Source: Acidipropionibacterium jensenii DSM 20535
Lineage (GTDB): Bacteria > Actinomycetota > Actinomycetes > Propionibacteriales > Propionibacteriaceae
Direction of reading: 5' to 3'
Length of the DNA stretch: 64,000 nucleotides
Assembly: GCF_000425285.1 (NCBI RefSeq)
Contig: NZ_AUDD01000005.1
Span: 1-64,000, forward strand
The notes under the pieces are model-generated. The model ran no database searches. It saw only the letters and a program-made list of their open reading frames with translations, and had not been told where the DNA came from. The position numbers and the translations under genes are program-made. This document shows, in pieces, positions 12,463 to 59,157 of the stretch. Position 1 is the stretch's first letter. Every line of letters begins with the position of its first letter.

Positions 12463-13240
12463 CTCAACGTCGCGCCAGTGGGACACCCTGGCTGCCGAGG
12501 CCTCTCCCCGAACCATCGCCGAGACCGCCCGGGACCTGGCGGCGACCAGCGTGGCCTTCACCTACAACGACCCGGTGATCTTCGCCGAGTACGCCATCGA
12601 CACCGCCTGGGCGTGCCGCCAGGCAGGGGTTCAGCCGATCGCGGTGACGGCCGGCTACATCTCTGAAGAGGCCCGGCCGGCCTTCTTCGCACCGATGGCG
12701 GCGGCCAACATCGACCTCAAGGGATTCACCGAGCAGTTCTACCGCCGGGTGACCGGTGCACGACTGGAGACCGTTCTGGACACTCTGCGCTATGTGGTCC
12801 ACGAGACCGATGTGTGGACCGAGATCACCACCCTGGTGATCCCGGGGTTCAACGACTCCGACGAGGAGCTGACCCGGCTCTCGCAGTGGGTGGCCGGGGA
12901 GCTGGGCCCCGATGTGCCTCTCCACTTCTCGGCCTTCCATCCCGACAACAGGATGCGCGATGTGGCCCGCACCCCGGTCTCGACCCTGCGCAGAGCACGA
13001 GAGCTGGCGCGGGCGGCCGGGCTGCACCACGTGTACGTCGGCAATGTCCACGACACCGATGGGGACACCACCTGGTGCCCGGGTTGCGGGACCGCCCTCA
13101 TCGTGCGCGACTGGTACCAGATCCTGTCCTACCGGCTGGGCCCGGACGGCCGTTGCCCCGACTGCGGAACTCCGATCCCGGGGCGCTGGGAGGAGAGCCC
13201 CGGGGACTTCGGCAGGCAGCGGATCCCTGTCCGGATCTGA
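12446..13240 (+). pseudogene. amrS: AmmeMemoRadiSam-type radical SAM protein, 3' fragment cut by the prophage
   Basis: 265 codons of a roughly 340-residue radical SAM protein of the AmmeMemoRadiSam system, PflA-like, substrate unknown. The fragment starts at 'CQNWEIS', whose cysteine is the third of the CxxxCxxC Fe-S motif. The first two cysteines and the N-terminus are absent. It continues with 'SVAFTYNDPVIFAEYAID', 'VTAGYI', 'ANIDLKGF', 'VWTEITTLVIPGFND' and 'PLHFSAFHPD', and ends in two CxxC zinc-ribbon pairs ('CPGCG', 'CPDCG'). An internal GTG at 12551 could start a shorter product, but it could not bind the cluster. The gene would be restored only if the prophage excises precisely. Confidence 0.8.
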
Positions 13241-13278: not shown

Positions 13279-13349
13279 CCTCCAGAGGACCGACCCCCAG
13301 GAACCTCCCCAGAGGACCGACCGACATCCAGGAACCTCCCCAGAGGACC
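13279..13349. repeat. Short direct repeats, period 31 bp
   Basis: The 22-bp block 'ccaggaacctccccagaggacc' without its last two bases is at most 20 long and occurs at 13297 and 13328. A partial copy (ccagaggaccgacc) precedes it at 13282. No gene overlaps it. Together with the repeat array further right it fills the 520-bp gap between amrS and pepC. Confidence 0.6.
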
Positions 13350-13550
13350 ACACTCACCCAATCTGCTCCGGGTGGCCTCCTTCTCGTCCGTCGCCATGGC
13401 CTGGTTCTCACGCGTCGTCGACAGCTTCCTTCTCGGCTGTCATGTGTGCGTCAGACTTGGGAGTTGCCAACCTGTCCCCGCCATCCGTTGATCCAGGTGC
13501 TCGGAAGTCCCACTTCACTGGGGCCGAGTCTGCTGGGAGCGCCCGCCGCG

Positions 13551-13712
13551 ATGAGATCTGCCACAGAGGAGCCACCACGCGGATAATCCACATGCCGACC
13601 CAATTTCTGGCAGAACTCGTTCAGGGGGCCGCCCGGGGCTGGTATGAGATCTGCCACCACGGAGCCAGCAGCTGGACTATCCAGTCGCCGACCCTGTGGT
13701 GGCAGATCTCAT
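13551..13712. repeat. Array A of nested palindromic repeats (2 units, 93-bp period)
   Basis: Two units start with gagatctgccac at 13553 and 13646. Each has a central dyad (degenerate gcggataatccac in unit 1, ctggactatccag in unit 2), a 'cgcc-a/g-gccc'-like stretch, and a closing arm (ctggcagaactc in unit 1, gtggcagatctcat in unit 2). The array is therefore bounded by a perfect 14-bp inverted repeat, atgagatctgccac at 13551 and gtggcagatctcat ending at 13712. The same units recur at 58041-58293. No credible gene lies in 13241-13761. Confidence 0.8.
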
Positions 13713-13761: not shown

Positions 13762-15093
13762 TCAGGCCAGGGCATCCCACTCGGGCAGCACGATCGGCTC
13801 GGTCTGCCACTGCTGCCGGATCTCCTCGCTGACCCGCTCCGGGGCGACCACGACCTGGAAGACGTACTCGTCGAACCAGGAGTCGTTCATCGTGAAGAAC
13901 CCCTTCTTGCCGACCTCATCTCCCCAGGAGTTCTCGACCCGCCAGCGCCGAGGCTCCCCATCGACCAGATCCACCCCGACCAGGGTCATCGCGTGGGTCG
14001 GCCCGGTCTCACGGCCGCGCATCCGATCGGCCTTGGTCATCGACATGTCGATCCCGTAGAGGCCGTTGTAGTCGTGGAGGTTGGCATCCCAGATGCCACC
14101 GGTCCGGTCGAACTGCTGCTTCACGTCACAGGTGAACCAGACCGGCTCACCGTCGCGGATGGCGGCGATGGCTGCCTCTTTGAGGTCCTTGATGTCCGCG
14201 GTGACGTGGGCGTAGGGGGTTCCCCCCTCCATCAGCGGGGTGTGGTCGATGACGTACTTGCGACCGACCGGGTTCTCCGTGCGGGGGTCGTGTCCGACCG
14301 TGAGGTACCCGTCCAGCGACTCGGGTGCGTACCTGGCCGCGAACTCCAACGGCGTCAGTCGACCCTCGGAGTGGAACTTCTTGTCCTTGTCCCGGTACTG
14401 CCAGGTGAAACTGGTGGGCGGGGTACCGAGGTGGATCGCCAGCACCCGGTAGACATCGGCGAGCGCCTGGCGGTGCTCCTGCTGAATGCGCTCGGCGCGC
14501 TCCCGGCCGTCGGAGTCGGTGATCTCGACCCGGATCCGCAGCACGGCGCGGCGCAGCACCTGAGCCAGCGCCCGGTTGAGCTGGTCGGTGTTGCCGGCCG
14601 ACTCGGTGTCGGGCATCGCCCAGACCGGCACCAGACCGTACTTGCGCACCAGGTCCAGGAACTGCGGCCAGTACCCGCCGTCGCCGGAGACATCCTCCAG
14701 GATGTCCCGAACCTCCTCCTCGGCAGGGTCGTGATCAGCGGTGGCGATCGCCCGCACCAGGGTGTGGTTGGCCTTCTCCAGCTTGTCGTGGAAGGCGATG
14801 AAGTTCTGCGAGAACTCGAAGTTCTCGAGGTTGAGGTCCTTGATCATCCTGGCCCGCAGCACGTTGAGACCGGCGAACTCCCAGCACCGTCCCGAGTGCT
14901 TCTGATTGGTGACCGTCCAGGCGTCCAGTCGCTCGCACACCGAGTCATCGGTCTGGTTGACGATCCGCCGGTCGAGGCTGACGGTGTCGGCACCGGTACC
15001 GGTCACGGCATTCTGGACAATCCGGGCAGTCGGGTCGTCGTCGAAACTCTGCCCGCACTCGGCGGCGAAGGACGGTTCGAGGATTGAGGTCAT
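13762..15093 (-). CDS. pepC: Aminopeptidase C (bleomycin-hydrolase family, peptidase C1B)
   Basis: 443 residues, the normal length for PepC. It is a cytoplasmic papain-like cysteine aminopeptidase, usually a hexamer, that trims N-terminal residues from peptides. The catalytic triad is visible: C70 in 'HSGRCWEFAG', H367 in 'THAMTLVG' and N388 in 'VENSWGDE'. The conserved N-terminal 'ARIVQNAVTGTG' and the self-inserting C-terminal tail ending 'EWDALA' are also present. It stands alone between repeat array A and a membrane-protein gene on the same strand. No upstream signal peptide. A probable peptide-nutrition enzyme, as in lactic and dairy actinobacteria. Confidence 0.95.
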   Translation of the reverse strand: MTSILEPSFAAECGQSFDDDPTARIVQNAVTGTGADTVSLDRRIVNQTDDSVCERLDAWTVTNQKHSGRCWEFAGLNVLRARMIKDLNLENFEFSQNFIAFHDKLEKANHTLVRAIATADHDPAEEEVRDILEDVSGDGGYWPQFLDLVRKYGLVPVWAMPDTESAGNTDQLNRALAQVLRRAVLRIRVEITDSDGRERAERIQQEHRQALADVYRVLAIHLGTPPTSFTWQYRDKDKKFHSEGRLTPLEFAARYAPESLDGYLTVGHDPRTENPVGRKYVIDHTPLMEGGTPYAHVTADIKDLKEAAIAAIRDGEPVWFTCDVKQQFDRTGGIWDANLHDYNGLYGIDMSMTKADRMRGRETGPTHAMTLVGVDLVDGEPRRWRVENSWGDEVGKKGFFTMNDSWFDEYVFQVVVAPERVSEEIRQQWQTEPIVLPEWDALA

Positions 15094-57014: not shown

Positions 57015-57872
57015 CTACCGACCCCGGTGGGCACGCCTCCTGGGCCAGTGGTGGTCACCGCGCCGGACCACTGTGAGGATCTGCTCCTGGGCCTGTGGCC
57101 AGCCGAACATGACATCCTCCCAGGTGAGCCTCATCACCCGGTACCCCAGCGCAAGCAGCCGCCGGTCCCGGACCCGGTCGGCTTGGTAGCTCTGTTCGCT
57201 GGTGTGGTGAGCTCGCGAGTCGACCTCGATGACGAGCCTCTCCCCCACCAGCAGATCAACCCGGCCCACCCCGGGGATCGTCACCTGTGAGGCGACCTGG
57301 ACGTTGTGGCCACGCAGTCTGATCCTCACCAGGGTCTCGGTCCCGGACTCGGCGCGGTCGCACTGGGACAGCAGGGCGCGTGCCCTGGGCGAGTCCGCGA
57401 GCTCCAGTGCCAGATCGGCCATGGTCGCCACCCGCAGATTCACCATCGAGTCCAGAACCGCCACCCCGTTGTCCCGGTCCAGGCATCGGATGGCCGCTCG
57501 CACGGCGACCAGCGGATCGTCGATCGCCCGTATCGGTGCCGGTCTGCGCCCCGGCGAGCACTCCTGGACACGCTTTGAACCGGTCGTGCCCCGGCTCGCC
57601 CTCACATGCAGCGCGGTGTCGCCGAACGGCCGGAACACTCCGAATCTGGCCAGGGCAGAGACACAGGTCATCACACCGCCGGCGCGCACCGCGGCGACCA
57701 CCTCCGGGTCGGCATCGCGCAGGCTCCACCACCCGGGCCTCAGGTTCTCGACCAGATCGCCGGAGAGGTGCAGCTTGCTGATGTCGGGATAGGAGTAGCC
57801 CGCACTCCGCAGGACTCTGGTGGAGACCACACCGCCGGGGCGCAGCTGGGGTGGGATGTCGTAGTGCTTCAT
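57015..57872 (-). CDS. DUF559 nuclease-like protein with AbiEi-like N-terminal domain
   Basis: 285 residues; the ATG at 57872 gives 'MKHYDIPPQLRPGGVVSTRV'. The N-terminal 95 residues form a helix-turn-helix-like region ('GVVSTRVLRSAGYSYPDISKLHLSGDLVENLRPGWW'), as in AbiEi-type antitoxin-domain proteins. The C-terminal 100 residues show the very-short-patch-repair-like fold 'RVDLLVGERLVIEVDSRAHH', 'RDRRLLALGYRVMRLTWEDV'. PD-(D/E)xK nuclease residues D and E-x-D are in place. No toxin partner is visible. It lies 10 bp after DUF1707 and directly beside repeat array B. Confidence 0.7.
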   Translation of the reverse strand: MKHYDIPPQLRPGGVVSTRVLRSAGYSYPDISKLHLSGDLVENLRPGWWSLRDADPEVVAAVRAGGVMTCVSALARFGVFRPFGDTALHVRASRGTTGSKRVQECSPGRRPAPIRAIDDPLVAVRAAIRCLDRDNGVAVLDSMVNLRVATMADLALELADSPRARALLSQCDRAESGTETLVRIRLRGHNVQVASQVTIPGVGRVDLLVGERLVIEVDSRAHHTSEQSYQADRVRDRRLLALGYRVMRLTWEDVMFGWPQAQEQILTVVRRGDHHWPRRRAHRGR

Positions 57873-58040
57873 GCCTCCACTTATCGGGGCCGCAACCCCG
57901 ATCTGCCGCCCGTGCGCCAATCTGGGGACAACTTCTGTCACCCATGGAGCGGGCTGTGGATGGGCAGTCGCCGGCCCCGGGATGACAGAACTCACTGGAA
58001 CCGCACCCCGGACTCACCGGAACCCCACCCTGGACAGAAA

Positions 58041-58293
58041 CGAGATCTGCCACTGAGAAGGCACCCGCCTGGACTATCCAGTCGCCAGCCCACAGATGGC
58101 AGAACTCACCGGAGACCCCCCGAGCACAAAACGAGATCTGCCACCAAGACCGCACCCACCTGGACTATCCAGCCGCCGGCCCACAGATGGCAGAACTCAC
58201 GGGAGACTCCCCGAGCACAAAAACGAGATCTGCCACCAAGACCGCACCCACGTGGACTATCCAGGTGTGTGCCTTCTCAGTGGCAGATCTCAT
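58041..58293. repeat. Array B of nested palindromic repeats (3 units, 91-92 bp period)
   Basis: Units start with gagatctgccac at 58042, 58133 and 58225. Each has the inner dyad (ctggactatccag in units 1 and 2, gtggactatccag in unit 3). The first two close with tggcagaactca and are joined by 'gagcacaaaa' spacers. The last closes with gtggcagatctcat (58280-58293), the exact inverse of the opening arm. A degenerate unit precedes (57930-57995, ending 'gacagaactcac'). The 57873-58317 gap holds no gene. Same family as array A at 13551-13712. Confidence 0.85.
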
Positions 58294-58317: not shown

Positions 58318-59157
58318 TCAGTCCAGTGGACCGAAGGCCACCCCTCGCGCCGTCAGCTCGGCCTCGCCGCCATCGGGCTCGGTGAGCACCCACAGCCCGT
58401 TCCGCGTGACGGCCACCGTGTTCTCCCAGTGGCTCGACCACGAACCGTCGAGGCTGCGCACCGTCCAGTCGTCATCCAGGGTGACATTCTCCTCATCGCC
58501 GAGGGTGGCCATCGGCTCCACGCACAGGCACATCCCCTCGGTGATTCTCGGCCCCCGGTGGGCCCGGCCCCAGTTCGGCACATCGGGATCCATGTGCATC
58601 TCAGTGCCGATGCCGTGACCGGTGTAGTCGCGGATGATCCCGTAGTCGTGCTCGTGGGACTCCAGGGACACCTGGACCGCCGACGAGACATCACCGATCC
58701 GTGCTCCCGGAGCGATCTGGGCGATCCCGTCCCACATCGACTTGCGGGTCGCCTCCGACAGCTCCCTCACCTCATCGGAGACCTCGCCGACCAGGGCGGT
58801 GCGGGCCGCATCGCCGTGCCAGCCGTCCACGATGGCGCCGTAGTCGATCGAGACGATGTCCCCGTCGTGCAGCTCCCGCTCGTCGGGGATCCCGTGCACG
58901 ATGACCTCGTTGACGCTGATGCAGGCCACTCCGGGGTAGGGCTGGATCCCCCACTCGGCGCCGTACCCCAGGAAGTTCGAGGTCGCGCCGTGACGGGCGA
59001 TCACCTCCCTGCCGATGCGGTCGAGGTCCGCGGTGGTCGCACCGGGGACCGCGGCGGCCACCATCTCGGCCAGCCCCTCGGCGACCACCAACCCGGCGCG
59101 ACGCATCACGCGGATCTGGTCATCGTCCTTGATCTGGATCCTGTGGCGTCCGAGCAT
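58318..59157 (-). CDS. map: Methionine aminopeptidase type I
   Basis: 279 residues. Removes the N-terminal methionine from new proteins. Metal-binding residues are visible in 'DIVSIDYGAIVDGWHGDAART' (two Asp), 'YTGHGIGTEMH' (His), 'CVEPMATLG' (Glu) and 'SSHWENTVAVT' (Glu). Its ATG overlaps the adk stop by one base, so it is in the secY-adk-map operon. The repeat array B begins 25 bp downstream. Confidence 0.97.
   Translation of the reverse strand: MLGRHRIQIKDDDQIRVMRRAGLVVAEGLAEMVAAAVPGATTADLDRIGREVIARHGATSNFLGYGAEWGIQPYPGVACISVNEVIVHGIPDERELHDGDIVSIDYGAIVDGWHGDAARTALVGEVSDEVRELSEATRKSMWDGIAQIAPGARIGDVSSAVQVSLESHEHDYGIIRDYTGHGIGTEMHMDPDVPNWGRAHRGPRITEGMCLCVEPMATLGDEENVTLDDDWTVRSLDGSWSSHWENTVAVTRNGLWVLTEPDGGEAELTARGVAFGPLD

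What the first reader, a model, noticed from the sequence alone, without database searches (positions are those of the whole stretch)
13551..13712. New-looking family of nested palindromic repeats, array A
Two units with a 93-bp period are bounded by a perfect 14-bp inverted repeat (atgagatctgccac / gtggcagatctcat). Inside each is a second dyad centred on ggactatcc. The units match those 44 kb away nearly base for base in the arms and centre, while the spacers differ. This suggests a dispersed element that is moved or maintained, for example REP/MITE-like or a multimerised protein-binding site. The amount of conservation is more than chance, and no known class fits the size and nested layout.
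Basis: seen in the sequence. Interest (0 to 1): 0.75.

Follow-up and report, generated by a model that had tools for sequence, protein, structure and literature searches.

The report
Fixed-geometry palindromic repeats in Acidipropionibacterium
This is an old, genus-specific family of short symmetric DNA elements between genes, whose ends, centre and exact spacings are kept while the DNA in between drifts; it behaves like a set of protein-docking sites on the chromosome, and what uses them is unknown.

Summary
Array A (13551-13712) and array B (58040-58293) belong to a dispersed intergenic family: 24 units in 12 arrays in this 3.03-Mb genome, about 118 units in five Acidipropionibacterium species, almost none in the other 193 genomes of the family searched. 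Each unit is a 65-66 bp dyad: two 11-bp arms (GAGWTCTGCCA / TGGCAGAWCTC) flank an 11-bp centre (TGGA-nnn-TCCA). The sequence between drifts, but its length does not: in four species arm, centre and arm lie 32|32 bp apart in 55 of 58 units, and neighbouring units repeat at exactly 91 bp in 36 of 39 cases, although the 26-bp spacers share little sequence. Arm changes are compensated on both sides. G-U and A-C mismatches are equally frequent, so an RNA hairpin is unlikely; no U-tracts and no gene-orientation bias argue against terminators. Several arrays sit at the same intergenic site in different species. Best reading: phased DNA sites for an unidentified dyad-binding protein. Main rival: a REPIN-like mobile element, but this genome has no RAYT-type (Y1) transposase. 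Not in Rfam; no describing paper found. A new variant of the REP/BIME/REPIN kind. Function is inferred, not shown.

The parts
13551..13619 (+). Array A unit 1: arm 13551-13564, centre GGATAATCC 13581-13589, right arm CTGGCAGAACTCG 13607-13619
   Evidence: sequence; covariance-model hit E 4.1e-17
13644..13712 (+). Array A unit 2: arm 13644-13657, centre GGACTATCC 13674-13682, perfect right arm 13699-13712; folds end to end as a near-complete hairpin
   Evidence: z -8.8 and -9.7 on the two strands; E 1.0e-20
13620..13643 (.). Spacer between the two units of array A (the arm-to-arm gap is 27 bp here, 26 bp in almost all other pairs of the genus)
57928..57995 (+). Array B degenerate unit
   Evidence: E 2.3e-5
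58040..58109 (+). Array B unit 1 (centre 58071-58079)
58131..58200 (+). Array B unit 2 (centre 58162-58170)
58223..58293 (+). Array B unit 3, near-perfect hairpin (centre 58254-58262), about 25 bp from the stop codon of map
13762..15093 (-). Flanking gene: C1-type aminopeptidase (bleomycin hydrolase family); its 3' end faces array A
   Evidence: Pfam PF03051 E 7.6e-136
12551..13240 (+). Flanking gene: C-terminal part of AmmeMemoRadiSam radical SAM enzyme; its 3' end faces array A
   Evidence: TIGR04337 E 2.4e-108, profile positions 121-349
58318..59157 (-). Flanking gene: methionyl aminopeptidase (map); its 3' end faces array B
   Evidence: TIGR00500 E 4.1e-80

Best explanation
Arrays A and B are members of a genus-wide set of double-stranded DNA sites with fixed geometry. 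An unidentified DNA-binding protein, probably a dimer or higher oligomer particular to Acidipropionibacterium, recognises the two inverted arms and the central TGGA-nnn-TCCA palindrome of each unit, and binds neighbouring units cooperatively at a 91-bp pitch. The bound pair most likely acts on the DNA itself (wrapping, bridging or a local topological barrier between genes), not as a promoter operator or an RNA signal. Shown: the family, its geometry, compensated arm changes, absence of an RNA strand bias, conservation of lengths without sequence, and retention at orthologous sites. Inferred: that a protein binds, that binding is cooperative, and the architectural role.
For: Length without sequence: G001-G004 units are 32|32 about the centre in 55 of 58; the period is exactly 91 in 36 of 39 neighbours; 26-bp spacers in nearly all pairs have 43% mean identity against 33% shuffled. 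Larger departures of the period are about +21 (array B degenerate unit), +22 (G004) and about +31/+32 (two G000 arrays), close to whole helical turns (only four cases). Dyad kept through paired changes: cells changed on both sides 202 against 147 shuffled, 0/500; columns 9:61 U-A to G-C in 10 sequences. At seven orthologous units of G001 and G002 the arms are 85%, the centre 79% and the interior 63% identical, without indels. DNA, not RNA: G-U 92 and A-C 105 in interiors, and 56 against 50 when oriented to transcription. Same site across species, e.g. next to map in four species.
Against: No binding protein was identified and no binding data exist. Interiors keep slightly more pairing than swapped halves (8.4 against 7.5 of 14, 0/2000), and some units are near-perfect hairpins, which fits a single-strand or cruciform role too. 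Arrays come and go: site A is empty in A. thoenii and lacks an array in the MAG; others are missing in G001. In G000 the unit is mostly 66 bp, sometimes 65 or 67.
Confidence: 0.48

Rival explanations
1. REPIN-like non-autonomous mobile element: inverted conserved ends and a spacer of conserved length that fold as a hairpin in single-stranded DNA and were spread by a tyrosine (HUH) transposase, now lost or unrecognised.
For: REPINs show the same plan: inverted conserved ends, intervening sequence where length and hairpin capacity matter, compensatory changes, tandem clusters (PMC3116915). Two arm subtypes (TCTGCC and TCGGCC) coexist in G004. Lineage-specific sets: nearest neighbour in the same genome for 14 of 24 (G000) and 22 of 31 (G002) units. 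Array A is absent in A. thoenii.
Against: No Y1_Tnp gene in four of five genomes including this one; the only one, in G002, is an IS200/IS605 transposase with no unit beside it. No GTAG or CGTC tag in the aligned units. Interiors within a genome are too diverged for recent copying. Orthologous site sharing is frequent.
Confidence: 0.32
2. Transcribed RNA hairpins: bidirectional terminators or 3' UTR stabilisers.
For: Strong hairpins; many arrays lie 10-60 bp after a stop codon.
Against: 12 of 47 arrays lie between divergent genes and only 9 between convergent ones; no TTTT at any of 96 array ends; G-U equals A-C; exact spacer length between hairpins is not needed for this role.
Confidence: 0.1
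3. Symmetric bidirectional promoters: arms as -35 elements, the centre as a shared -10 element (A at position 2, T at position 6, 18-bp spacing).
For: One sigma-70-like match CTGCCA-18-GATAAT inside unit 1; nearly invariant A and T of the centre; constant 18-bp spacing.
Against: First -10 base is G or C, not T; the arms are conserved over 11-12 bp, far more than a -35; promoter function does not explain the 26-bp inter-unit spacing or placement between convergent genes.
Confidence: 0.06
4. Chance, or ordinary tandem duplication without function.
For: One array holds identical units (C10: 2110 and 2202), so local duplication does occur.
Against: 25 against 0 exact arms; about 118 units in five species with the same geometry.
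Confidence: 0.02

Closest known systems
REPINs (REP doublets forming hairpins; PMC3116915)
   Same: Intergenic, two inverted conserved ends, less conserved interior of fixed length with compensatory changes, sometimes tandem clusters, several subtypes per genome
   Different: Ends are 11 bp and not themselves palindromic; there is a third conserved block at the centre; pairs at an exact 91-bp pitch with unrelated spacers; no RAYT in this genome; 6-40 copies per genome; Actinomycetota
REP/BIME of enterobacteria, and GTAG/CGTC-tagged REPs (PMC3733652, PMC2817692)
   Same: Alternating orientation of a short motif with two alternating spacings between genes; [quoted passage not shown]
   Different: No GTAG or CGTC tag; unit 65 bp, not 20-40 bp; spacer sequence not conserved
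Chromosome-organising site families (SlmA, Noc, MatP sites; from general knowledge)
   Same: Tens of palindromic sites per chromosome at retained positions; in G001 and G002 all arrays lie in the origin-proximal 55%
   Different: Those sites are single short palindromes; the origin bias does not hold in G000 or G004
MITEs / ERIC-like repeats (general knowledge)
   Same: Terminal inverted repeats, intergenic, size about 65-130 bp
   Different: No autonomous partner or convincing target duplication; interiors not conserved

Membership tests
REPIN / REP | Two inverted conserved ends that can form a hairpin, intergenic | tested here: met
REPIN / REP | RAYT (Y1/HUH tyrosine transposase) in the genome, flanked by the repeat | tested here: not met
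   PF01797 absent from G000, G001, G003, G004; the G002 gene has no unit near it
REPIN / REP | GTAG or CGTC tag at one end (GTAG/CGTC REP superfamilies) | tested here: not met
   aligned unit ends read mostly ACGAG/ATGAG and CTCAT/CTCGT
REPIN / REP | Recent within-genome copying (near-identical copies at different sites) | tested here: not met
   5 of 842 between-array pairs above 75% interior identity
MITE | Target-site duplication at an empty/filled site pair | tested here: inconclusive
   G002/G001 pair at L113 shows only ACTG on both sides, and looks like a deletion in G001; A. thoenii lacks the whole 520-bp intergenic stretch of array A
MITE | Autonomous element with the same terminal repeats | tested here: not met
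   exact arms outside units are few strays, one of them seen to lie in a sugar-transferase coding sequence; draft gaps in G000 leave some room
Intrinsic terminator | Stem-loop followed by a U-tract downstream of genes | tested here: not met
Known RNA family (Rfam 15) | Match above a gathering score | tested here: not met
   0 matches in the window
Cooperative protein-binding array | Sequence-specific protein binding with phase dependence | not testable with these tools
   only indirect: conserved lengths

The most novel reading that the evidence does not exclude
A chromosome-structuring system of Acidipropionibacterium not yet described: a dedicated protein docks on paired three-block palindromes at an exact 91-bp pitch at a dozen or more positions, and its specificity has shifted between lineages (TCTGCC to TCGGCC arms, 65 to 66 bp units), so that sites change in step while staying at the same chromosomal positions.
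Probability: 0.25. Interest if true: 0.72.

Novelty: new variant of a known kind. Interest (0 to 1): 0.5.

Why it matters
Why bacteria keep palindromic repeats between genes is a long-standing question, usually confounded by recent copying. Here the copies are old, the interiors have drifted, and only blocks and exact distances remain, so selection on the DNA geometry can be separated from descent. The family is in cultured dairy-associated species, so binding and deletion tests are practical.

Tried and rejected
Exact pattern scans of genome contigs and viral contigs found nothing (records near the source may be left out). Nucleoid-occlusion-like origin bias: in G001 and G002 all arrays lie within about 1.08 Mb of oriC, and this is not because the terminus half is poorly conserved (its sampled stretches align better with G001); but arrays of G000 and G004 map into the terminus half (smpB-ftsX at 1.56 Mb, polyprenyl synthetase at 2.26 Mb, others), so it is not a property of the family. 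RAYT association: rejected. Terminators and RNA: rejected. Phages and plasmids: no repeat match. Literature searches found no description. Gene calls around arrays come from a simple GC3-weighted ORF picker, so the orientation counts are approximate.

Full report
Observation. The two units of array A start at 13551 and 13644 (93-bp period), with ATGAGATCTGCCAC and its exact reverse complement at 13699-13712. Unit 1 has an imperfect right arm and the centre GGATAATCC; unit 2 has GGACTATCC. Array B (58040-58293) holds three more units, plus a degenerate one at 57928-57995. Chance is excluded: 23 near-matches of the arm in the window against 9.3 expected and 25 exact arms in the genome against none for the reversed control.

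Family. Species names for G000, G001 and G002 were not established. Covariance models (R1; R2) give 24 distinct units in 12 arrays here (the copies at the ends of contigs C6 and C9 are one and the same: 499 bp identical), 16 in G001, 32 in G002, 6 in G003 and 40 in G004. Over 198 genomes of the family only these five carry the repeat in number; three others have one or two weak places each. Arms occur outside units only as strays, one of them seen in the coding sequence of a sugar transferase. Rfam has no match.

Anatomy. A unit is arm (GAGWTCTGCCA), about 16 free bases, centre (TGGA-nnn-TCCA), about 16 free bases, inverted arm. In G001-G004 the centre lies exactly in the middle (32|32) in 55 of 58 units; in G000 one half is usually a base longer, sometimes the left and sometimes the right. 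Neighbouring units lie exactly 91 bp apart in 36 of 39 cases in G001-G004; the spacer is 26 bp in nearly all pairs of all species, including G000 where the unit itself is longer, although spacer sequences are only 43% identical on average (33% for shuffled ones). The four large departures from the usual spacing (about +21, +22, +31 and +32) are near whole helical turns; this is suggestive only.

Selection. Arms change in step on both sides: pairs 5:65, 6:64 and 9:61 of the alignment switch by double changes, and overall 202 double-change cells stand against 147 in shuffles (0/500); these counts include relatedness of the sequences. Interiors pair slightly more than swapped halves do (8.4 against 7.5 of 14 pairs). 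At seven orthologous units of G001 and G002, arms are 85% and interiors 63% identical, without length change. Between arrays of one genome, interiors are 50-54% identical against 39% for shuffled interiors, and only 5 of 842 pairs exceed 75%. So the copies are old, and what is kept is arms, centre and distance.

Position. Seven of the own arrays have an array at the same intergenic place in at least one other species: next to map, pstB, cca, an amino-acid ABC transporter/hisC, an ABC permease/dihydropteroate synthase, and two more. At several of these the interior is saturated and the arm type differs (GAGATCTGCCA in G000, GAAATCGGCCA in G004). Arrays are also lost or gained: array A is absent in A. 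thoenii, where the two genes abut, and in the MAG; G001 lacks arrays present in its relatives at several sites. Flanking genes are 26 co-directional, 12 divergent and 9 convergent.

DNA or RNA. If one RNA strand were selected, G-U mismatches should exceed A-C mismatches in the interior. They do not: 92 against 105, and 56 against 50 after orienting to transcription. No array end is followed by TTTT (0 of 96), and no terminator-like site lies near array A. The constraint therefore appears to act on DNA.

Interpretation. The simplest account is a phased array of sites for an unidentified dyad-binding protein. Conserved distances without conserved sequence are what cooperative binding or wrapping predicts; neutral old duplicates should have collected insertions and deletions. 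The protein, the cooperativity and the architectural role are inferences. The strongest rival is a REPIN-like element: PMC3116915 describes inverted conserved ends, an interior where length and hairpin capacity matter, and compensatory changes. Against membership: no Y1 transposase in this genome, no GTAG or CGTC tag, no recent copying. I therefore call it REPIN-like in plan, not a REPIN.

Rejected lead. In G001 and G002 all arrays lie in the origin-proximal 55% of the chromosome, with the terminus half actually better conserved between the two in the sampled stretches, which resembled nucleoid-occlusion sites. Mapping of G000 and G004 arrays onto G001 put several into the terminus half, so the bias is lineage-specific at most.

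Noticed in passing
window 13351-13423: About 73 bp next to array A are 76-85% identical to plasmid sequences of Pseudomonas and Rhodococcus, in one case at the edge of a helix-turn-helix (recombination-annotated) gene near an IS3 transposase: probably an insertion-sequence end remnant.
   Followed up: partly
window 13288-13349: A separate 31-bp tandem repeat, two copies, 93% alike, in the same intergenic stretch.
   Followed up: no
window 12551-13240: The AmmeMemoRadiSam radical SAM ORF matches only profile positions 121-349; its N-terminal part is missing from this frame (possible frameshift or other start).
   Followed up: no
G001 at about 75,530-75,600 (site of the C1/hisC array): Where G000 and G002 carry an array, G001 has a different 16-bp inverted repeat near GGATCTCCCGACAG/CTGTCGGGAGATCC.
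   Followed up: no
G001 and G002 chromosomes: All arrays lie within about 1.08 Mb of oriC and none in the terminus half, unlike G000 and G004.
   Followed up: partly
G004 C3:20500-20772 (L140 2101-2373): A TGGCC-type pair stands directly beside a TCTGCC-type unit, 113 bp on (91 + 22), so the two arm subtypes meet in one intergenic region.
   Followed up: partly
window 57015-57995: ORF beside array B with a DUF559 / MTES_1575-type nuclease-like domain.
   Followed up: no
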